From IMG/VR virus record IMGVR_UViG_3300020192_000052, positions 1-32,334 of that record: a stretch of DNA of 32,334 nucleotides. One strand, 5' to 3'. The DNA comes from a virus. Shown in pieces: positions 2,289 to 30,054 of this stretch. The notes beneath the pieces were generated by a model. It saw only the letters and a program-made list of their open reading frames with translations, was not told the origin of the DNA and made no database searches. The stretch's first letter is position 1. Each line of letters starts with the position of its first letter. A program made the translations under genes and the position numbers.

Positions 2289-2600
2289 ATGCCTCAATAT
2301 AAAAAGGGGGACCAGAGGCCACAAGGTTCTGGTCGAAAACCTGGGTCAAAGAACAAGAAGTCTTTTCTTGTCTTAGAGGTTTTAGAAAATAACGGCATTG
2401 ATATCGTTCAAAAGATTATTGATTCACTCCCGAGTCTTCAGCCTCAAGACCAGGTGAAAGCACTAATCGCACTACTCCCCTACTGTTTCCCAAAACTCAC
2501 GGCCATTGAAGTATCAGGCGGGATGAATCTTCAAGACGAACGTCCCCTAAAAGAGATTTCAAATGAGGACCTCGACCAAATCCTTATTGATAAAGATTGA
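2289..2600 (+). CDS. Putative small terminase subunit or terminase-associated protein
   Basis: This 103-aa protein lies directly upstream of, and overlaps, the large terminase gene, the usual place of the small subunit. The N-terminus carries GSGRKPGSKNK, the Gly/Arg/Lys-rich G-R-x-x-G-S-x-N-K motif common in phage DNA-binding proteins next to terminases (DUF5681-like). A helical middle follows (VLEVLENNGIDIVQKIIDSL) and an acidic C-terminus (EISNEDLDQILIDKD). Known family behaviour: the small subunit recognises phage DNA and regulates the large subunit. The assignment rests on position and the basic motif; no HTH is clear by eye. Confidence 0.5.
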   Translation: MPQYKKGDQRPQGSGRKPGSKNKKSFLVLEVLENNGIDIVQKIIDSLPSLQPQDQVKALIALLPYCFPKLTAIEVSGGMNLQDERPLKEISNEDLDQILIDKD

Positions 2601-3990
2601 TGAGGCTCGTCGCGAGTCGTGGGAGAGAGGTCGGCTAAATTACCTCCTACACGAGGGCCAACGTAAAATTGATGAGATATTTAGAAAAGTCTTAGGACAA
2701 CTCTTTGTCGCAAACGTTCCAAGACAATATGGGAAAAGTTATTGGGCTGTAACAAAAGCGCTAAGTGTTGCGATATCAAAGCCAAAGGCTCGCATTAAAT
2801 ACGCAACTGCCTATCAAACAGATTTGGTTGAATTCATTCTGCCCACATTCGACGCCGTTCTTCAAGATTCTCCAGCGCACTTAAGGCCCGTTTATAAAGT
2901 GCAAGGCTCTAAGTGGGTTTTCCCAAATGGCTCTGAAATTAAACTTGTTGGCCTTGATAAAAGCCCCAACTCCCTTCGCGGTAACGTTATTGATCTCATC
3001 ATCATTGATGAAGCAGGCTTTGTTGAAAACCTAACCTACATCTATGAGTCGATCATTATCCCGGCCACGCTCCATCGGCCTAATTGCAAGATTATCTTCA
3101 TCTCGACACCTCCCTCAACTCCGGCTCACCCGTTTGGCGACTTCATTCAAAAGGCTGAAAAGGAAAATGCTTATATAAAGCTAACGATTTACGATAACCC
3201 GCGCATTGGTGAAAATGATATTGAGCGTATGGCTCGTGAAATGGGCGGGCGTGACTCGACAACATTTCGTCGCGAATGTTTATGCGAACTAGTCCTGGAT
3301 GATGACCTAGCAATTTGTCGTGAGTGGAAGGATGACTTTATTGCAGAAATCCGGCGCGATGAATTCTTCGGTTACTACCATAAACTTGTGGGACAAGACT
3401 TAGGCCGAAAAGACCACACAGCTTTAATCTTTGGCTACTACGACTTTAAAAGAGCCGCTCTCATCATCGAAGACGAGCTGACAATGGAGGGCCCAAGCTG
3501 GACCACGTTAACCCTAAAAGATGAGATCAATAAAAAGGAAAAGGCCCTTTATGGCGAACATAGGGTGTTTCGACGCGTCTCCGATAACAATAACCCACAC
3601 CTTTTGCAGGATCTATCGTCCCTTCACAACATGCATTTTATGGCCGTTAAAAAGGACTCAAGTCTTGAACAAATGGTTAACCGGATCCGGGAATGGGTTA
3701 GAGACGGCAGAATTCTCATTAACCCGCGCTGTAAGATGCTCATCGGCTGCTTAAAGTACGGCATCTGGGATAAGAACCGTAGAGAGTTCTCGCGCTCAAA
3801 AATCTATGGCCATTTCGATCATCTGGCCGCGTTAATGTACCTTCTAATCCACACTCCATCATCATCTAACCCCATTCCACGTGAGCACGGTCATGAGGCG
3901 CATAAGGCATGGCTCGGAAATCTCAAAGGTCAATCGAGCTCTAACGCCCGGACCTTTGAAAGCCTACTTGGACCCAAGAAACGCAAATAA
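2563..3990 (+). CDS. terL: Terminase large subunit (packaging ATPase and nuclease)
   Basis: The 475-aa product has the two-domain terminase layout. ATPase domain: Walker A-type PRQYGKS (GKS at residues 57-59), Walker B IIIDE (146-150), and coupling motif STPPS (181-185). RNase H-like nuclease domain: acidic residues in GQDLG (D279), RRVSD (D341) and GHFDH (D419). The protein translocates DNA into the procapsid and cuts it. I chose ATG 2563, which has AAGAGA upstream and a 38-nt overlap with the previous gene; TTG 2587 is an alternative. The gene is followed immediately by copy 2 of the intergenic element and the portal gene. Confidence 0.95.
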   Translation: MRTSTKSLLIKIDEARRESWERGRLNYLLHEGQRKIDEIFRKVLGQLFVANVPRQYGKSYWAVTKALSVAISKPKARIKYATAYQTDLVEFILPTFDAVLQDSPAHLRPVYKVQGSKWVFPNGSEIKLVGLDKSPNSLRGNVIDLIIIDEAGFVENLTYIYESIIIPATLHRPNCKIIFISTPPSTPAHPFGDFIQKAEKENAYIKLTIYDNPRIGENDIERMAREMGGRDSTTFRRECLCELVLDDDLAICREWKDDFIAEIRRDEFFGYYHKLVGQDLGRKDHTALIFGYYDFKRAALIIEDELTMEGPSWTTLTLKDEINKKEKALYGEHRVFRRVSDNNNPHLLQDLSSLHNMHFMAVKKDSSLEQMVNRIREWVRDGRILINPRCKMLIGCLKYGIWDKNRREFSRSKIYGHFDHLAALMYLLIHTPSSSNPIPREHGHEAHKAWLGNLKGQSSSNARTFESLLGPKKRK

Positions 3991-4011: not shown

Positions 4012-4020
4012 ATTCACTTG

Positions 4021-6006
4021 ATGGCTAAAGCCGACCGAAACAACGTTTACTGGGCTTCAGTCCCACCAAAAGAAATCGCAGACGAAATCCTCGATAAGGT
4101 CGAAAACTATTACCGATACATGTCGGTGACAGGCCGTCTTGGTCTCTACCGCCGAAGCTACACTTATTTTTATAGACCGCGCGTTACTGGCGGTCGCTTG
4201 AACCCAACCGGTGAACAGGGAGAGCTAACCGCTCTTTCTATTAACCACTATCGAAATCTGTTGTCCCACTTAGAGACAATGACCACACAACAGCGCCCAG
4301 CCTTTGAACCCAGAGCCACTAATTCAGACGCCAGAAGTCAGTCTCAGGTGATCTTGGCGACCGGCCTTCTTGATTATTACATGCGTGAAAAGAAGATGGA
4401 GCGATTCATCAAGTCTGGCGTTAAGGATTGTCTCATCTTTGGCGAAGCGTTTGTTCGTTGCGAGTGGGATGCATCAAGTGGCGAGGCTTACGGGAAAACC
4501 GAGACCGGCGCTACTGTTTACGAGGGTGATATGAAGTATTCAAACTTCACTCCGCTCAATTGCATCAGAGATTATTTTAAAGAAAACCCCTCTCAAGATG
4601 ATTGGGTTGTTCTACGTGAAACAGTTAATAAGCACACCCTGGCTGCTAAGTTTCCGGATCTGGCCGACGAAATTCTAAACGATTCAATTGATCTTTTAGA
4701 ATACGCAGCCACAACTTCGATTCAATCCTTGGGCTTAGAAGATTCAGACAACATTTTCATGTACACGCTTTTGCACAAACCAAGCCCCGCACTTCCTGGC
4801 GGTCGACTCACCACATGTCTTGATAACGGCACTGTCATGCAAGATGGACCGATTCCCTACAAGGAAACTCACGTTTATCGAATCGCCGCTGATGAAGAGA
4901 CCGGAACCATCTTCGGCTACACAGTGGGTTTTGATCTCTTGGCCGTTCAAGAAGCCATCGACATTCTCTATTCCACAATCATCACAAACCAATCAACTTT
5001 TGGCGTTCAAAATATCTTAGTCCCCAAGGGACACGACATCTCAACCTCTCAGTTATCCGGCGGCCTAAACCTCGTCGAGTACGACAGTAATGTTGGAAAG
5101 CCCGAGGCGATGAATCTAACGTCAACGCCGCCTGAGATCTTTAACTTTATCGGGATGCTTGAACGAGTTGGGGAAACCTTGTCTGGCGTTAATTCTGTTG
5201 CGCGCGGGAATCCTGAATCATCTCTTAAATCAGGCGCGGCCTTAGCCCTTGTTCAATCGATGGCGATTCAATTCAGCCAGAACTTGCAACAAAGCTACGC
5301 TCGTTTAGTTGAAGATGTAGGCACTGGGACAATTTCAATCTTAAAAGACTTCGCAGCGGTTCCAAGAGTCGCGGCCATTGCCGGTAAATCAAATCGTCCC
5401 ATGATGCGTGAGTTCTCCGGCGATGATCTCTCATCCATTAACCGCGTGATGGTTGATATGGGAAATCCTCTGACAAGAACAACTGCCGGAAAAGTGAACT
5501 TAGCCGACGCGCTGGCTGAGCGGAACATGATCGACAATCCAGACCAGTACATCCAAGTCATCACGACTGGACGTTTAGAGCCCGTTATTGAGGGTAAACA
5601 AGCTGAGTTGTTGCTGATCAAAGCTGAGAATGAAGAGTTGGCCGAGGGTAAGCCGCAAATCGCGCTCATTACCGATCAACACGCCCAACATATTTTGGAG
5701 CACAAAACTGTATTAGCTAATCCACAGGTTCGTCGTGACCCAGAAAGTGCGAACATCATTCAAGTAACTCTCGCGCACATTCAAGAACACATCGGAATGC
5801 TACAAACCGGCGACCCTGTATTGTTACAACTCATCCACCAACAGTCGTTTGCACCACAACCCCCGGCACAAAGCCCAGGGAATGCGATGAATGCAATGCC
5901 AGCAGTTCAGCAAGAAGCGGCGGCGGTTCAAGGACCGAACATGCCATCGCCCCCGGCCGGGGCTGATGCAACGAGTGCAGCTCTTATTGAAGGAAATCAG
6001 GCCTAA
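4021..6006 (+). CDS. Portal protein
   Basis: The 661-aa product follows terL and has the size and composition of large podovirus portals. The N-terminal part contains YRRSYTYFYR and an invariant-looking segment around LETMTTQQRPAFEPRA, followed by a helical region. The C-terminal part is Gln/Pro/Ala-rich, as in portals with barrel extensions. Portals form the dodecameric ring at the head vertex through which DNA enters and leaves, and they dock terminase and the adaptor. The start may be ATG 4021 or TTG 4018; both are served by GAGGGG at 4006-4011. The assignment rests on position, length and resemblance rather than a catalytic motif. Confidence 0.85.
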   Translation: MAKADRNNVYWASVPPKEIADEILDKVENYYRYMSVTGRLGLYRRSYTYFYRPRVTGGRLNPTGEQGELTALSINHYRNLLSHLETMTTQQRPAFEPRATNSDARSQSQVILATGLLDYYMREKKMERFIKSGVKDCLIFGEAFVRCEWDASSGEAYGKTETGATVYEGDMKYSNFTPLNCIRDYFKENPSQDDWVVLRETVNKHTLAAKFPDLADEILNDSIDLLEYAATTSIQSLGLEDSDNIFMYTLLHKPSPALPGGRLTTCLDNGTVMQDGPIPYKETHVYRIAADEETGTIFGYTVGFDLLAVQEAIDILYSTIITNQSTFGVQNILVPKGHDISTSQLSGGLNLVEYDSNVGKPEAMNLTSTPPEIFNFIGMLERVGETLSGVNSVARGNPESSLKSGAALALVQSMAIQFSQNLQQSYARLVEDVGTGTISILKDFAAVPRVAAIAGKSNRPMMREFSGDDLSSINRVMVDMGNPLTRTTAGKVNLADALAERNMIDNPDQYIQVITTGRLEPVIEGKQAELLLIKAENEELAEGKPQIALITDQHAQHILEHKTVLANPQVRRDPESANIIQVTLAHIQEHIGMLQTGDPVLLQLIHQQSFAPQPPAQSPGNAMNAMPAVQQEAAAVQGPNMPSPPAGADATSAALIEGNQA

Positions 6007-6064: not shown

Positions 6065-6955
6065 ATGACCGACACAATTGCAGCCCCTGCACCAGTAGCC
6101 ACAACCGAAGCCGCACCACAGAATGCTGGGCAAACCCCAGCAGGCGGCGCACAAACTGGCGATGTTAAATCAGCAGCCCAAGAGGCCATGCGAAAATACA
6201 AGGTTAAGGTTGAGGGACAAGAACTAGAGGTCGATGAAAAAGAACTTCTACGTGGTTATTCTCATCAAAAAGCAGCTTCTAAAGCATTAAACGAGGGGAA
6301 AGCCCTTCGTAAACAGGCCGAAGAATTCGTCGCCATGCTTAAAGATAAAGACAAACTAAAAGATGTGCTCGTAAAGCTTGGGCATGACCCGAGACGATTA
6401 TCAGAAGAGATCTTATCGGCGCATCTTGAAGATGAATTAATGGACCCGAAGGATAAACAGCTTCGCGATATTACCTCCAAACTAAAGCACCTAGAGGACA
6501 TGGATAAACGACAAAAAGAAGCCGTCCAGACGCAACGCTTAGAAGAGATGAAGACTCGCTTCATGAAAGAATATGAAACAGACTTTGTTCAAGCCCTTCA
6601 AGAATCAAAGCTCCCGCCAACTAAACCTATGGTTGCTGAAATGGCCCGCTACATTTCTCGCGCCGCAAAGATTGGCTTTAAAATGTCAGCTCAAGAGGCC
6701 GCAAAACTTGTCGCAGAAGATGTTCGTAGCGCTCATGAAAGGCTCATCGGGGATTCCGACGGGGAAACACTTCTGAAGCTTCTAGGGGATGAGGTCGCCA
6801 ACAAGATTCGAAAGGTCGATACCTCAAGACTTAAGAATCCAGAAGCCGGACTACAAACACCTGAAAAATCTCTTGAACCCAGAGAACGCCGCCACTCACC
6901 GCAAAAACGCATGAGTACGCGGGAATGGCAGCTTCATAAGCGCGGCTTGAGGTAA
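6065..6955 (+). CDS. Scaffolding protein
   Basis: The 296-aa product sits between portal and capsid, the standard scaffold position. It has an Ala/Pro-rich N-terminus, a long highly charged helical centre (for example LKDKDKLKDVLVKLGHDPRR and KHLEDMDKRQKEAVQTQRL) and a strongly basic C-terminus (REWQLHKRGLR), as in scaffolds whose basic tail contacts the coat. Scaffold guides procapsid assembly and is then lost or cleaved. Start ATG 6065 has a strong GGAGGAG site. The 58-bp spacer before it has a small CCTTT/AAAGG hairpin but no clear terminator. Confidence 0.8.
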   Translation: MTDTIAAPAPVATTEAAPQNAGQTPAGGAQTGDVKSAAQEAMRKYKVKVEGQELEVDEKELLRGYSHQKAASKALNEGKALRKQAEEFVAMLKDKDKLKDVLVKLGHDPRRLSEEILSAHLEDELMDPKDKQLRDITSKLKHLEDMDKRQKEAVQTQRLEEMKTRFMKEYETDFVQALQESKLPPTKPMVAEMARYISRAAKIGFKMSAQEAAKLVAEDVRSAHERLIGDSDGETLLKLLGDEVANKIRKVDTSRLKNPEAGLQTPEKSLEPRERRHSPQKRMSTREWQLHKRGLR

Positions 6956-7125: not shown

Positions 7126-7264
7126 ATGGCAATTGATTCAGGAACATTAAACGCACTTTATAAAGTAGCTTACGCAAAAGGCATCGTGGACGAAATTCCG
7201 GATGCATCAAAACTTATCGACCTCATTCCGTTCGTACCGTCTGACCTGCAAAACGGCAAACACT
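7126..7264 (+). CDS. Major capsid protein, exon 1 (46 codons plus one base)
   Basis: ATG 7126 opens a frame encoding MAIDSGTLNALYKVAYAKG...DLQNGKH. Without splicing it ends at once: the last exon base T with the first two intron bases makes TAA (7264-7266). Bases 7257-7264 (CAAACACT) pair perfectly with the internal guide GGTGTTTG at 7272-7279, leaving the U-G pair expected at a group I 5' splice site after 7264. Joined to exon 2 at 8037 the frame continues as NGKH-YEQPVVLAAEQGF, an uninterrupted 434-aa protein. The split gene lies directly after the scaffold gene, where the coat gene is expected. Confidence 0.85.
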
Positions 7265-8036
7265 AAATCTTGGTGTTTGTGGGTTAATCCCACTAGGTTC
7301 TTAATCCCGTTTGGGAGGAAGATTAAATGAAAACTTACAAAGTATACTGCATAAAAGACAGACTTTCTAATGAAATCAAGTATGTAGGCTTAACAGGCTC
7401 AACTCTCTATAAACGGTTTAACGACCATGTTTCTAGACAGAAGTTAAACCCTAAAGACTACTATATTGGACTAATTCAAGGAGATTTAACTCTTCCTGAA
7501 GCTGCAACACTAGAAAGAATGCTCATTGAACAATATGACCTTTTAAATAAAGGATGGAATAAGTCGCCAGGAAGCATCAATGGATGCTCTAATGAACACT
7601 CACAATCTCAAAAAGATAAGTGGTCAGTAGAAAGAAAGAATAAACCCTTTCTTCACAGGCAGAACCGAACCTCTCCAAACTCTAAAAGTCATAACGAAGC
7701 AATCAGCAAGGCTAATTCAAAGCCTATTATCTGTCTGAATGACGGTTTAACTTACCTCTCTTTAAGAGTTGCTGCTAAAAAGCTCAACTTATCTGAGAGT
7801 AAGGTCTCTTTGGTAGCTAATGGTAAAAGACCACACACCAAAGGCTTTAAGTTTAAATACCTATAAATTTCTTCTAATTGACTTGGAGTTCCAGCAGTGG
7901 ATAACAAGGGGCAAGATAATCTCGGCCTGAACGACTAAATGAAGAAACCTCGACAGAGGATGCGATAGTCTGATCTACCTTATAACAACAAGAAGAGGTA
8001 GGAGTTGATCCGAAGAGTTCAACCACTAACATGATG
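7265..8036 (+). mobile_element. Group I intron with homing endonuclease, in the capsid gene
   Basis: The 5' end carries the guide sequence forming P1 with exon 1 (GGTGTTTG, 7272-7279) and a following small stem (TGGG/CCCA, 7280-7292). The 3' part has the group I core: GACTA at 7933-7937 within GAACGACTAAATG (R-type element) pairs with TAGTC at 7966-7970 (S-type element) as P7. P8 is CCTC/GAGG with loop GACA (7948-7959). P9 is CTACCT/AGGTAG (7975-8001), and GTTGA/TCAAC follows. The intron should end in G; both G8036 and G8033 keep the exon 2 frame (YEQPVV or YDEQPVV). I saw no convincing P10. Self-splicing is inferred. Confidence 0.88.
7327..7866 (+). CDS. GIY-YIG homing endonuclease with C-terminal NUMOD-type domain
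   Basis: This 179-aa intron-encoded protein has the GIY-YIG nuclease layout: VYC (residues 6-8) and YVG (19-21) for the two signature strands, R30 and H34 in YKRFNDH, and E63 in TLERMLIEQY as the likely metal ligand. The C-terminal 50 residues (CLNDGLTYLSLRVAAKKLNL... to GKRPHTKGFKFKY) match the NUMOD1-like DNA-binding helix-turn-helix pattern of such enzymes. ATG 7327 has GGGAGG upstream. It would cut intron-less capsid genes near the exon junction and spread the intron. All key residues look intact, so the element may be active. Confidence 0.92.
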   Translation: MKTYKVYCIKDRLSNEIKYVGLTGSTLYKRFNDHVSRQKLNPKDYYIGLIQGDLTLPEAATLERMLIEQYDLLNKGWNKSPGSINGCSNEHSQSQKDKWSVERKNKPFLHRQNRTSPNSKSHNEAISKANSKPIICLNDGLTYLSLRVAAKKLNLSESKVSLVANGKRPHTKGFKFKYL

Positions 8037-9202
8037 ACGAACAACCAGTTGTTTTGGCTGCTGAACAAGGCTTCACCTATAGCCTTGATTCTCAGTCGGC
8101 TTACGATCTGAACGACTCTATCGGCATGGCAATGCAATCTGCAGTTGTCCCCGGCGCTGACATCGTTCTCGATTCGACCATTGGTTACAACCAAGCGGCT
8201 CGCGCTTCGCACTCGGCAAATGCTTTCAAGAGCGTTATGTCGACGAAGTTTGAGAACATGCTGAAATCAAGCCGCAAACGTCTTGAAATCGCTATGCTCT
8301 ACGGCCAAAGCAACATTGGAACTGCAGCAACTCAAGCGGTCACGATTGCTAGCTCGATGCTCCCGATCGTTATCGACACGGCTTCATGGGCAACTGGCAT
8401 TTGGGCTGGTTCTGAAAATTCAAACGTTGTTTTAGTTAAAGCTTCTGACAACGACGACGTTGATTCTCTGCGCTCTTTCAAAATCGCTAAAGTCGACGTT
8501 GATGCTCGCACGATCTACTTGGCTGCTGGAACTGCCGGAACTGCTGGCACCTTGTCAACTCTTGAAACTGCTATCGAAGCCTACGCTTGTAACATCCATT
8601 TCTATGGATCTTGCTCTGGAACGACTAGCGCTTTCGTATACGCAGAAATGGCAGGTCTTAAAAAGATCATGACCAATACCGGAACACTCTTTGGTATTGA
8701 TGCTGCTGCTTATGACTTGTGGCGCGGAAACGTCGTTACATCTTCTGGCCAACTCACAATGGCTAAAGTATTGAGCGCAGTTTCTAAAGCCGTTCAGCGT
8801 GGTCTTGATGTTGATGCTACGGTCTTGGTTAACCCCTCGACTTGGGCTGATTTGGCATCAAACCTTGCAGCTCTTCGCCGATTCGATGGATCGTACTCGA
8901 AGAAAAAAGCTGAAAACGGATCTGAAGTATTAGAATACGTTTCTCAAAACGGTTCGTTGAAGCTTGTTAGCTACAACATCGTTAAAGAAGGCGATTGCTT
9001 TATCTTCCCAGAAGAAAAAGTTATGCGTATCGGCGCTCGCGATTTGAGTCTCAATGACCCGACTCGCCCGGCTGATGAAGTGTTCTTCACGATTCCTGGC
9101 AAAGCAGGCGTCGGAGTTCGCGCCTACACTAACCAAGCAATCTTCTTAGAGTCGCCCGCACAAGCGGTCTACATCTCTGGAATTGTTAACTCGCTTGCAT
9201 AA
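8037..9202 (+). CDS. Major capsid protein, exon 2
   Basis: Bases 8037-9202 continue the exon 1 frame and encode 388 residues (EQPVVLAAEQGFTYSLDSQ... to VYISGIVNSLA) before TAA. An apparent TTG start at 8054 is not needed; the protein is complete only after splicing. The segment has the alternating helical and beta character of an HK97-like coat, with sequence such as KSVMSTKFENMLKSSRKRLEIAMLYGQ near its start (long-helix region) and a beta-rich end (GVGVRAYTNQAIFLE). The identification rests on order (after scaffold), length and composition. A strong terminator at 9223-9250 follows. Confidence 0.82.
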
Positions 9203-14126: not shown

Positions 14127-15065
14127 ATGGCTGGTCCCTCTTTTGCTACTGAAGCATTGATTTCAAATATCAAGAGACGTTGTGCTGTCCCTAATTCTCA
14201 GCTGACATATTTGCCCGCTGATTTTACAGACATTGCAAACGACGAGCTTCAGGGACGCGTAGTGCCGCTGCTCATGAGCACTAGAGAAGATTACTTTGTA
14301 AGCTTTACAGATGTAACGCTGTCTGGGAATGAAGTTGAAATACCGGCTGACGCAGTTGGAGAAAAACTTAGGACTGTCGCCATAGTTTCTCAAACTAGCC
14401 CGCTTGTTCTCAACAACCTTCCACGCATTGATTTAGATGTCGTTGCGGGAGTCGGGTTTTCTAGCTCCACATCTATCGCTGGATTCTACATTCAGGGCAA
14501 CACTCTGATGCTTTATCCTTCCAACGCTGTTCCGCAGAGTACGACGATTCGTCTTTATTATTATAAAAGAACGCTAGCTTTAGCAGCGCCTTCTACCTAT
14601 GGGCAGGTTGTTGCCGTCAACCCTGGAACCAGTACGGTGCAGCTATCTTTTCTACCGTCTTCTTGGGTGACCGGAACGGTTCTAAATTCTGTGTCGGAAA
14701 CATCCCCATTTGAAGTTACTGATTCATCGATCACCATAGTATCAACTTCGTCGCCATCAATCATTGTGGACTCCGTCGCAGATATTGCTGTTGGTGATTA
14801 CATATCGGAAGAAGGCTATTCAGCCATTCCACAAATTCCAATTGAGGCACATGCCTATTTAGCACAGCTATCGGCTGTGAAATGTTTAGAGGGCTTAGGT
14901 GACAGAGAGGGAATGAAAGCCGCAAACGCTATGGCTGAGATTTTAGAAAAATCCCTCCTCGTTATGGTCTCTCAACGGGTGGATGGATCTGTGAAAAAGA
15001 TCGTTAATCCTAATGGCGGGCTTCGGATGAATGGCGGCCTCTGGCGCTCAGGGCGGGGGCTCTAG
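14127..15065 (+). CDS. Head-to-tail adaptor protein (podovirus adaptor-like)
   Basis: The 312-aa protein sits immediately before the large nozzle-like gene, as adaptor (tail tube A, T7 gp11-like) genes do. The N-terminus (FATEALISNIKRRCAVPNSQLTYLPADFTDIANDELQGRVVPLLMSTREDYF) has the helical character of adaptor N-terminal helices. The middle is beta-rich, and a helical segment (IEAHAYLAQLSAVKCLEGLG) follows near the C-terminus. Adaptors form the dodecameric ring between portal and tail. The assignment is by resemblance and order; the central beta insertion (about residues 160-215) is larger than in minimal adaptors. Confidence 0.65.
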   Translation: MAGPSFATEALISNIKRRCAVPNSQLTYLPADFTDIANDELQGRVVPLLMSTREDYFVSFTDVTLSGNEVEIPADAVGEKLRTVAIVSQTSPLVLNNLPRIDLDVVAGVGFSSSTSIAGFYIQGNTLMLYPSNAVPQSTTIRLYYYKRTLALAAPSTYGQVVAVNPGTSTVQLSFLPSSWVTGTVLNSVSETSPFEVTDSSITIVSTSSPSIIVDSVADIAVGDYISEEGYSAIPQIPIEAHAYLAQLSAVKCLEGLGDREGMKAANAMAEILEKSLLVMVSQRVDGSVKKIVNPNGGLRMNGGLWRSGRGL

Positions 15066-27535: not shown

Positions 27536-27901
27536 ATGCCTAGAATCAGATCAATTAAACCAGAGTTTTGGTGCGACGGGGAGGTGCATAAATTGTCCGA
27601 TGCCGCAGCACTGTTTTTTGTCGGAATTTGGAATTTTTGCGACGATCAAGGACGGTGCACTACAGACCCGTCCCAGCTCTCATTATGGATGCCACGTTTT
27701 AGGGCACAAAACGTCAAGCACTGGTTGAGGGAATTGCAAAAAAAAGATCTGATCAAAATTTCACGGGAAGGGGGACACCTGTTGGTCGTTAACTGGCACC
27801 ACCAGAATATAAAAAAGCCAAGGCCGGGTGACCCGAACTTAGACAAAATTGAGTTTGGTAACGATATCGATTTGTCGAACGACGGGAATCTACATGCCTA
27901 A
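27536..27901 (+). CDS. Phage replisome-organiser-type DNA-binding protein, 121 aa
   Basis: ATG 27536 is preceded by AGAGGGA. The opening RIRSIKPEFWCDGEVHKLSDAAALFFVGIWNFCDDQGRC follows the widespread phage pattern R-S-I-K-P-E-F-W...L...A..LF.G.WN..DD.GR, found in winged-helix replication proteins. The second half has WLRELQKKDLIKISREGGHLLVVNWHHQ, a wing-like beta turn, and a short tail. Such proteins bind origin DNA or help load helicase; that function is inferred. It is the first gene of the replication block. Confidence 0.75.
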   Translation: MPRIRSIKPEFWCDGEVHKLSDAAALFFVGIWNFCDDQGRCTTDPSQLSLWMPRFRAQNVKHWLRELQKKDLIKISREGGHLLVVNWHHQNIKKPRPGDPNLDKIEFGNDIDLSNDGNLHA

Positions 27902-27938
27902 TCATCACTTTAAACCACGACAAACGAAGGGGAGAGTC

Positions 27939-28673
27939 ATGGAAGAAACAATCGAAATAGTAGTTAAAGGATGGGACAAATACAACCCGAGGAAAGACGT
28001 CAAACACCACTCTTGGTTTAGGCTTCAAAACAGCATTTTTGAAGACCATGAGCTTTTCTTATTGTCGCCAAATGAGATGGCTTTTTTGGTTTATGTGTTC
28101 TGTCTTGCCTCAAAAAAGAACTGCGAAAATGTCATTATTTCGATCCCGCACGCCATCAAAGTTGGACGTTTTGACGTTAAGACTATCGACCGAGCCCTTG
28201 AAAAATTGCACTCAGCAAAAATCGTAATAATTTCCGAAACATCCCGGATCCGTACGCACCCGATACGCATCCGTACGCTACAAACAAACAAACACTACAA
28301 ACAAACATTACAAACATTACACTCAAACATTACAAACAAACACGGATCGGATATTGCATTTGTAGAAAATACGAACATCTTTGATTTTAAGAACCAGGCA
28401 CCATCAACATGGTTATTTGAATTTTCTAGATCAGAAGATTCTCAAAAGTGGGAAGAGCTAATCCAAAACGCTTTTGAAAATAAGGCACCTCCTGAAATTC
28501 TAAAACTAACCGCCAAGCTGGCGTGGCTGTACCGAACCGACCTTGAAACCTTTCGGGCCGACCTGAACGACCTTTTGAGCGCGAAACTAAATTCCGAAGA
28601 AAACCGGCGGAAGTATTTGGCCGTCTGCCTCAAAAAGAAACTCGGCCTCATCGCCGCGAAGGCTGCGGGCTGA
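27939..28673 (+). CDS. Replication initiator / replisome-organiser protein, 244 aa, with internal repeats
   Basis: ATG 27939 has a strong GGGGAGAG; ATG 27894 is a possible longer start. The N-terminal domain (KGWDKYNPRKDVKHHSWFRLQ... and LSPNEMAFLVYVFCLASKKN) matches phage initiator proteins with a winged-helix core. A basic, Thr/Gln/Asn/His-rich linker (about residues 103-138) is encoded by an iteron-like repeat array, and the C-terminal part is helical (WEELIQNAFENKAPPEILKL), perhaps the helicase-loader contact. The layout matches lambda O. The stop overlaps the next ATG (TGATG). Confidence 0.75.
   Translation: MEETIEIVVKGWDKYNPRKDVKHHSWFRLQNSIFEDHELFLLSPNEMAFLVYVFCLASKKNCENVIISIPHAIKVGRFDVKTIDRALEKLHSAKIVIISETSRIRTHPIRIRTLQTNKHYKQTLQTLHSNITNKHGSDIAFVENTNIFDFKNQAPSTWLFEFSRSEDSQKWEELIQNAFENKAPPEILKLTAKLAWLYRTDLETFRADLNDLLSAKLNSEENRRKYLAVCLKKKLGLIAAKAAG
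28248..28342 (+). repeat. Iteron-like repeat array, candidate replication origin
   Basis: Within the initiator gene, ATCCGTACGC occurs at 28248-28257 and 28269-28278 with a partial copy between. Then TACAAACAAACA occurs exactly three times (28279-28290, 28296-28307, 28331-28342), and CAAACATTACA three times (28302-28312, 28311-28321, 28324-28334). The second block is strongly A+C biased by strand and low in G. Repeats in the linker-coding part of an initiator gene are a known origin arrangement, as in lambda O. Confidence 0.7.
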
Positions 28674-28861
28674 TGGAACTTCAAAAAATTGTCGCCGCAT
28701 TTAAACGGCTTCTAAGCCACGATCTTTCCTTGGACCATGCGAGACCCCAGTTGATGAAAGTTTTTTCAATGGCGACCCCTTCACGCTCGTTAGGTTTGAA
28801 GTGGCTCGTAGAACTGCTCCGTTGTTTTGGCCGAAACAACCTTTTGAGCGGGTTAATCTGA
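28673..28861 (+). CDS. Small protein, 62 aa, start duplicated in the helicase gene
   Basis: ATG 28673 overlaps the preceding stop (TGATG). The product MELQKIVAAFKRLLSHDLSL is similar at its N-terminus to the helicase encoded next (MDLQKIAATLARHL), and the DNA of both starts matches closely over about 30 bases. The remainder (SMATPSRSLGLKWLVELLRCFGRNNLLSGLI) is helical and basic. It could be a helicase partner or a leftover from a tandem duplication. Its stop overlaps the helicase start by one base. Confidence 0.6.
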   Translation: MELQKIVAAFKRLLSHDLSLDHARPQLMKVFSMATPSRSLGLKWLVELLRCFGRNNLLSGLI

Positions 28862-30054
28862 TGGATCTTCAAAAAATTGCCGCCACATTGGCGCGTCACC
28901 TGGTTTTAAAAGATGGCGCCAAAGAAGAAATCGAACTGCACGGGATCAACTTCCGGGATTGGCCTGATTTCATCGACGCCAAGAAAATTTTTAAAGACTA
29001 CGAAATCATCACGCTTTCGAAAAAACACGAGGCTGCCCGCTTTGAGTTGCGTCCAGGGGTTGAAAAGATTTTTGAAAAGTGGGGCGTCTCCGCCCTTGAG
29101 CGACCGCTCGGGATCAAAGAATGCGTCGCCCTTTACCCAGAGGTTTTAAGAAAACAAACGGTGCAAGATTTGGCCATCGATCTGGGGAAAGACTGGAAAA
29201 ACGCCGATAAGCTAATTTCTCAGTTTCAAAACAAACTTACCAGCGCCGTTAGGGCCGAAGATATTACTACGCTGGGTGACGAGTTCTTCATCGAGCTTGA
29301 CCGCCTTCGAAAAATTAATGGGCTGCAACGAATCCTGCCAGATTTCCCAATCCTTAGCGAAGCCATTGGCGGCTTTAATCCTGGTCGATTCACGATCCTC
29401 TTCGCCGACACCGGCTTCGGAAAAACCAACATCGCCCTGCAGCTAGCGCTTTCCGCGTCGAAGGTTTGGCCCACAACGTATTTCAATATGGAAATGACCC
29501 AGTTCGATTTTATGTACAGAACCATTGTGGCCGCTAGTGGCGAGACCTACCGCGAAATGCCTAAAAAGATTGACCGCCTGAAATTCCAACAACTTTTTCA
29601 AGGCCGTAAACTCCGCGTCACCCCCGGTAACGATCTCACCGTTCAAGAAATTGCCACTTCCATCATGCGCGAAAAACGAAAGTACGGCGCCGAGTTCTTC
29701 GTTGTAGATTACGACCAGAAAATTATTCTCGCCGATTCCGACGAACCCGAGTGGAAACAAATCCAACGCGCCGCTGTTTACCTCGAGCGCGTCGCGATCA
29801 GAGAAAACGTGCACGTGCTGCTTTTAGTGCAATCCAACTTCGAGGGCGGCATCTCCAGTTCCAAGCGGATGATGTACGGCGCCTACACAGTAATGCGCTT
29901 TCACAACGTCGAGAACAAAGACGTGATAGAGTGCATAAAAAATCGCGGAGGTGAAGGCGGCGCCACCGTTGAAGTTTCCTACGACCGAACCCGCGCATGG
30001 GTCCGAGAAAGCCGGAGGGTTACTCTTGAAAAATCTAAGTCCAGAAGAGTTTGA
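28861..30054 (+). CDS. Replicative helicase, DnaB family RecA-type ATPase
   Basis: The 397-aa product has a helical N-terminal part (1-155) and a RecA-fold C-terminal ATPase. Motifs: Walker A FADTGFGKT (K188, T189); NMEM (208-212), matching the SLEM-type catalytic Glu; Walker B FFVVDYD (D283); LLVQSN (Q324), matching the DnaB sensor Gln; and IKNRGGEGG (359-366), matching the DnaB K-N-R-x-G element. It should unwind the fork after loading at the origin. ATG 28861 overlaps the previous stop; a longer GTG start at 28801 would read through that gene and is unlikely. No primase domain. Confidence 0.88.
   Translation: MDLQKIAATLARHLVLKDGAKEEIELHGINFRDWPDFIDAKKIFKDYEIITLSKKHEAARFELRPGVEKIFEKWGVSALERPLGIKECVALYPEVLRKQTVQDLAIDLGKDWKNADKLISQFQNKLTSAVRAEDITTLGDEFFIELDRLRKINGLQRILPDFPILSEAIGGFNPGRFTILFADTGFGKTNIALQLALSASKVWPTTYFNMEMTQFDFMYRTIVAASGETYREMPKKIDRLKFQQLFQGRKLRVTPGNDLTVQEIATSIMREKRKYGAEFFVVDYDQKIILADSDEPEWKQIQRAAVYLERVAIRENVHVLLLVQSNFEGGISSSKRMMYGAYTVMRFHNVENKDVIECIKNRGGEGGATVEVSYDRTRAWVRESRRVTLEKSKSRRV

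What the first reader, a model, noticed from the sequence alone, without database searches (positions are those of the whole stretch)
7126..9202. Major capsid gene split by a group I intron carrying a GIY-YIG endonuclease
Exon 1 (7126-7264) and exon 2 (8037-9202) join in frame into a 434-aa protein. P1 (CAAACACT with GGTGTTTG, U-G at the splice site), P7, P8 and P9 are all visible, and the intron holds a complete GIY-YIG/NUMOD enzyme. Reading the gene without the intron would wrongly give a capsid protein lacking its first 48 or so residues. Introns in capsid genes of podoviruses appear much rarer than in polymerase, terminase or nucleotide-metabolism genes (from memory).
Basis: partly seen in the sequence, partly recalled or inferred. 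Interest (0 to 1): 0.85.

Follow-up and report, generated by a model that had tools for sequence, protein, structure and literature searches.

The report
Capsid gene split by self-splicing intron
An uncultured short-tailed phage carries a mobile, probably self-splicing RNA element inside the gene for its main shell protein; related phages show that this gene is a repeated landing site for such elements, which a standard RNA database search does not detect.

Summary
The finding holds. The major capsid gene of this SU10-like phage is interrupted by a 772-nt group I intron (7265-8036) containing an intact GIY-YIG homing endonuclease gene (7327-7866). Thirteen relatives (76-86% identical) carry the same capsid gene uninterrupted and read NGK[HQ]-YEQPV. 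This fixes the 3' splice site at 8036, not 8033, and shows that exon 1 is genuine capsid sequence. The ribozyme core is a group I pseudoknot: across 41 related phage introns 97.9% of pair cells pair, and P3, P5, P6 and P8 carry many compensatory changes. Rfam RF00028 misses this intron and the tested relatives. Capsid introns in phages are known, including one proven by RT-PCR (PMC3706429) and some in crAss-like phages, so this is a new member of a known kind. Two additions: (1) 38 of 56 introns of this class found in IMG/VR lie within or beside a major capsid ORF, so the claim that capsid introns are rare does not hold for this class. (2) Codons ~13-57 of SU10-like capsid genes are an insertion hotspot: at least seven other contigs carry one to three introns there, and two of them share exactly this window's position. 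Splicing itself was not tested.

The parts
7126..7264 (+). Major capsid gene exon 1 (46 codons + 1 nt; MAIDSGTLNALY...LQNGKH-Y)
   Evidence: Aligned in frame with the N-terminus of 13 uninterrupted homologues
7265..8036 (+). Group I intron, 772 nt, ending in G (omega-G, 8036)
   Evidence: Boundaries from empty-site homologues; core from nhmmer, CM and covariation
7257..7279 (+). P1: CAAACACU (7257-7264) with GGUGUUUG (7272-7279), U.G at the 5' splice site
   Evidence: Sequence; fold z-score -2.75; 23/7932 T positions as good
7280..7292 (+). P2 hairpin UGGG/CCCA
   Evidence: Sequence and fold
7299..7322 (+). Hairpin that partly covers the Shine-Dalgarno sequence (GGAGGA) of the endonuclease ORF
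   Evidence: Fold; regulatory meaning is inference
7327..7866 (+). GIY-YIG homing endonuclease ORF, 179 aa, with C-terminal NUMOD-like DNA-binding domain
   Evidence: PF01541, PF22083; phrog_314 homing endonuclease 1.9e-12; Y7, Y19, G21, R30, H34, E63, N78 invariant in three homologues
7868..7947 (+). P3 (7868-7874 with 7941-7947), the pseudoknot helix
   Evidence: 6 of 7 pairs with compensatory changes, 99% of cells paired
7882..7928 (+). P4 (7882-7885/7905-7908), P5 (7890-7893/7898-7901), P6 (7909-7912/7925-7928)
   Evidence: Compensatory changes in 1/4, 3/4 and 3/4 pairs
7933..7970 (+). P7 (7933-7937/7966-7970), guanosine-binding helix, enclosing P3' and P8 (7948-7951/7956-7959)
   Evidence: P7 invariant in 41 cores (constrained by the search pattern); P8 4/4 pairs compensatory
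7975..8023 (+). P9 (7975-7981/7995-8001) and P9.1 (8004-8008/8019-8023)
   Evidence: Fold of one sequence only, not better than shuffles
8037..9202 (+). Major capsid gene exon 2
   Evidence: SU10_MCP PF17236 3e-6; predicted fold of homologue L001 matches SU10 capsid chains in the PDB

Best explanation
The capsid mRNA contains a 772-nt group I intron. The RNA folds into the P1/P3-P9 ribozyme, uses an external guanosine bound in P7 to cut after U7264, joins U7264 to A8037, and so restores codon 47 (UAC, Tyr) and a 434-aa SU10-type major capsid protein. The intron also encodes a GIY-YIG endonuclease expected to cut intronless capsid alleles of co-infecting relatives, so that break repair copies the intron in (homing). 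Shown: in-frame exons, empty sites in relatives, covarying group I core, intact endonuclease motifs. Inferred: splicing, DNA cutting, homing.
For: Spliced ORF of 434 aa. 13 of 13 close homologues are uninterrupted with NGK[HQ]YEQ. A profile of 40 related cores without the window hits 7864-7976 at E=6e-26; the 5' half alone, which was not part of the scan pattern, hits at 8.5e-15. Covariation: 238 double-changed cells against 69.5 in shuffles and 20-43 when partners are slid. Endonuclease domains and invariant catalytic residues. Homologous endonucleases sit in capsid-gene insertions of two other phages, one at the identical site. Intron G+C is 38% against 47% for the exons, as for a mobile element. 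The homologue L001 is modelled as an HK97-fold capsid, with SU10 capsid chains among the top PDB matches.
Against: RF00028 does not recognise it (8.4 bits). P9 is supported only by a single-sequence fold. P10 pairing with exon 2 is weak (3 of 4 possible pairs, read by eye). No RNA or protein data. The related cores were retrieved with a pattern taken from this window's P7-P8 region, so P7 invariance is partly circular.
Confidence: 0.95

Rival explanations
1. No splicing: the capsid protein starts inside exon 2 (e.g. TTG 8054), and exon 1 is an unrelated or dead 46-aa ORF.
For: An ORF caller gives exactly this 382-aa ORF.
Against: All close homologues and the intronless wider-family members read carry the exon-1 counterpart in frame, with conserved positions on both sides of the junction; no ribosome-binding sequence is seen before 8054.
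Confidence: 0.02
2. The insertion is a decayed group I intron or a dead allele in a defective phage, so that the capsid gene is not expressed.
For: No expression data; metagenomic contig.
Against: Both exons and the endonuclease are free of stops and frameshifts, the core pairs of this sequence fit the family structure, and the CM gives it 115 bits (the window was part of that model).
Confidence: 0.02
3. The insert is removed in another way, for example translational bypassing, trans-splicing or a group II intron.
For: Other phage genes are known to use bypassing (T4 gene 60, from general knowledge).
Against: The 772-nt length, P1 with U.G, terminal G, covarying P3/P7/P8 pseudoknot and encoded homing endonuclease are all group I features; no group II family reached E<=10 over the region.
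Confidence: 0.01

Closest known systems
Capsid-gene group I intron of mycobacteriophage LittleE (PMC3706429)
   Same: Intron with an endonuclease gene in a major capsid gene; splicing proven there by RT-PCR and N-terminal sequencing
   Different: Siphovirus, different capsid, LAGLIDADG-related endonuclease on the opposite strand, intron type called most likely group I there
MCP introns of crAss-like phages, Delta and Zeta groups (PMC7886860)
   Same: Group I introns in capsid genes of uncultured phages, several per gene in some cases
   Different: Much larger genomes (Zeta group), other phage lineage, identified there mainly by endonuclease domains
Podoviridae sp. ctn9Y15, MW202674.1
   Same: The same intron class (72% identical over the core) splits a P22-type coat gene of a podovirus; GenBank lists two 'P22 coat protein' CDS
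   Different: Only a short hypothetical ORF lies between the two coat CDS; different capsid family and site
L017 = IMGVR_UViG_3300031772_000322
   Same: Same core class, homologous GIY-YIG endonuclease (52% identical), SU10-type capsid gene
   Different: Inserted 5 nt further downstream (YH^QPV); ORF lies after P7' instead of before P3
L155 = IMGVR_UViG_3300020195_000167, first intron
   Same: Identical insertion position (codon of the conserved Tyr, phase 1) and homologous endonuclease (47%)
   Different: No match to this window's core model; core resembles the middle intron of L175 instead (81% over 177 nt)

Membership tests
Group I intron | P3-P7-P8 pseudoknot core with P4-P6 | tested here: met
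   97.9% of cells paired; compensatory changes in 17 of 28 pairs, including 6/7 of P3
Group I intron | U.G wobble at the 5' splice site in P1; intron ends with G | tested here: met
   U7264.G7272; G8036; boundaries set by empty-site homologues
Group I intron | Match to Rfam RF00028 above gathering score (a detection criterion, not a biological feature) | tested here: not met
   8.4 bits against 50; 0 hits in 12 relative loci. Read as a model limit, since another capsid intron (L163) scores 109.6 bits with the same model
Group I intron | Guanosine-dependent self-splicing | not testable with these tools
   Needs in vitro transcription or RT-PCR
Group I subgroup IA (over half of viral introns in the PMC11835236 database are IA2) | Extra P7.1/P7.2 helices between P7 and P3' | tested here: not met
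   Only 3 nt (7938-7940) between the P7 5' strand and P3' (alignment, pairs); subgroup otherwise not assigned
GIY-YIG homing endonuclease | GIY-YIG domain with catalytic Tyr, Arg, Glu, Asn | tested here: met
   PF01541 above cut-off; the corresponding residues invariant across three homologues; assignment of catalytic roles from general knowledge of I-TevI
GIY-YIG homing endonuclease | Cuts the intronless allele and drives homing | not testable with these tools
   Needs a cleavage assay
SU10-type major capsid protein | Sequence and fold similarity to SU10 MCP (HK97 fold) | tested here: met
   PF17236 4.5e-6 on the spliced protein; model of homologue L001 matches SU10 capsid chains, E about 6e-10

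The most novel reading that the evidence does not exclude
A widespread class of phage group I introns, scored poorly by the standard Rfam model, is specialised on major capsid genes; in SU10-like phages the first ~57 codons are a shared homing hotspot where different ribozyme cores and different endonuclease families (GIY-YIG, HNH, LAGLIDADG) have converged on the same or neighbouring positions, up to three introns in one gene, with endonucleases exchanged between cores.
Probability: 0.5. Interest if true: 0.6.

Novelty: new member of a known kind. Interest (0 to 1): 0.48.

Why it matters
Capsid proteins are among the most strongly expressed phage proteins, so an intron there must splice very efficiently. 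Gene finders and databases report such genes as two fragments (as in GenBank MW202674.1) and lose the N-terminus. Because RF00028 does not score this class, and a recent 42,459-intron database was seeded from that model (PMC11835236), capsid introns may be undercounted. The endonuclease may also act in competition between co-infecting phages, as shown for another intron endonuclease (PMC11620839, abstract).

Tried and rejected
Rfam on the window and the intron, at gathering and at E<=10: only chance snoRNA hits; RF00028 alone gave 8.4 bits. The alternative 3' splice site at 8033 was rejected by 13/13 homologues. My first junction for L017 (LQPV) was wrong by one codon and was corrected against intronless L137; alignment A1 still contains it. 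The scan of bacterial and archaeal genomes for the capsid protein found no relative. A stop codon seen in L178 was only its normal end. The pattern scan contains chance hits and near-identical contigs; only those with the J6/7 sequence and unique flanks (56) were counted. Whether the first intron of L155 and the intron of L190 are group I rests on P1 and/or the terminal G only; not pursued.

Full report
Observation. The window is an IMG/VR virus record of 32,334 bases with a short-tailed-phage head module: terminase (2563-3990), SU10/P22-like portal (4018-6006), a scaffold-like gene by position only (6065-6955, no family match), the capsid gene, and an SU10-type adaptor (14127-15065). The two reading frames 7126-7264 and 8037-9202 join in frame into 434 aa. 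The intervening 772 nt hold a 179-aa ORF, 7327-7866.

Exon test. Thirteen capsid homologues from viral contigs, 76-86% identical over exon 2, are each one uninterrupted frame with the exon-1 counterpart in place. Their DNA continues in frame across the site and matches window 7264|8037, not 7264|8034. A wider search (80 loci) adds two more intronless close relatives (L126, L128).

Ribozyme. Rfam RF00028 gives only 8.4 bits. A pattern from the P7-P3'-P8-P7' strands found 96 viral stretches. Forty unique sequences, plus the window, share a full core. A profile without the window hits 7864-7976 at 6e-26. The part 5' of P7, which the pattern did not constrain, hits at 8.5e-15. On the alignment A3 the structure P3-P8 with its pseudoknot has 97.9% of cells paired against 77.9% in shuffles and 37-48% in slid controls, and 238 compensatory cells against 69.5 in shuffles. 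P3, P5, P6 and P8 covary; P7 is invariant, partly because the pattern demands it. A covariance model of this set gives the window 115 bits (the window was included in the model). The class has no P7.1/P7.2 and so is not subgroup IA; I did not assign it further. Twelve loci with these cores gave no RF00028 match at gathering, while a different capsid intron in L163 scored 109.6 bits with the same model. The limit of the model thus concerns this class.

Endonuclease. The ORF matches GIY-YIG and an I-HmuI/NUMOD-like DNA-binding domain; the profile of it and two homologues also matches the HNH homing endonuclease structure 1u3e over the C-terminal part. Residues corresponding to the I-TevI catalytic set are kept in three homologues. 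G+C is 36% and GC3 33%, against 47% and 46% in the capsid gene.

The neighbourhood of the finding is the larger story. Among 80 SU10-type capsid loci, at least seven others carry introns in the same stretch. Compared with intronless L137 and L170, the positions are: near LNG.FK (L163 and L175 with LAGLIDADG-like ORFs by my reading, not scanned against Pfam; probably L157); EIG^NLYH (L175 group); NL^Y, identical to the window (L155, GIY-YIG homologue 47%); NK^F, again the same codon and phase (L190, with an HNH-like ORF by my reading); YH^QPV (L017 with GIY-YIG 52%; L099 without ORF); QP^VQL (L163); QPV^Q (L155, L175 group, HNH-like ORF); and VLG^LEHG (L099, HNH-like ORF). L175 and two near-identical contigs have three introns within about 57 codons. 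The GIY-YIG family thus occurs in three introns at or within 5 nt of one site, in two different core types and at two different places within the intron (before P3; after P7'). The simplest reading is that the endonuclease recognises the conserved Y-x-Q-P-V coding sequence and has been exchanged between ribozymes; this is inference.

Targets of the class. Of 56 introns of this core class with unique flanks, 38 lie within or beside a major capsid ORF (10 with capsid sequence on both sides), 9 in or beside anaerobic ribonucleotide reductase, and 9 are unassigned by that clustering, one of them next to a portal and one next to a tape-measure gene. In the INPHARED phage collection a blastn search with the core found one record, the podovirus ctn9Y15, where the intron splits a P22-type coat gene annotated as two CDS. 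The sample is biased: the pattern came from a capsid intron, and related phages are counted more than once. The preference is a hypothesis, not a measured rate.

Comparison with the literature. Capsid introns are known: LittleE with proven splicing, and the lactococcal phage Tuc2009 as cited there (PMC3706429); crAss-like phages, including a capsid gene in five fragments (PMC7886860). A recent database started from the Rfam model (PMC11835236) and may under-represent this class. I found no report of introns in SU10-like capsid genes in the searched library, which does not hold most subscription papers.

Fold of the product. The uninterrupted homologue L001 is predicted with mean pLDDT 83.5; residues 46-52, at the splice junction, form a strand. 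Its best PDB matches are phage capsids, with SU10 capsid chains second and third.

What is not shown: splicing, endonuclease activity, homing, host, and any benefit to the phage.

Noticed in passing
L175 600-3000 (also L174, L179): One SU10-type capsid gene with three introns in about 57 codons; the first and third hold ORFs (LAGLIDADG-like and HNH-like), the middle one none.
   Followed up: partly
L190 2347-2992; L155 1235-2098: Introns at exactly the window's codon and phase, one with an HNH-like and one with a GIY-YIG endonuclease; L155's core does not match this window's class.
   Followed up: partly
L194 2693-4208 (MW202674.1 16569-18084): GenBank podovirus with its P22-type coat gene annotated as two CDS and a hypothetical ORF; a group I intron of this class lies between.
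   Followed up: yes
loci (L022, L024, L025 and others): A whole class of covarying group I introns gets no hit from Rfam RF00028 at the gathering threshold.
   Followed up: yes
L061 12376-12494; L048 1523-1651; L028, L079, L090, L091, L098, L102, L104, L110: The same intron class next to a portal gene, a tape-measure gene and anaerobic ribonucleotide reductase genes.
   Followed up: partly
window 7299-7322: A hairpin overlaps the ribosome-binding sequence of the endonuclease ORF; it could keep translation of the enzyme low.
   Followed up: partly
window 27849-30054: DnaD-like helicase loader and DnaB-like helicase genes at the right end.
   Followed up: no
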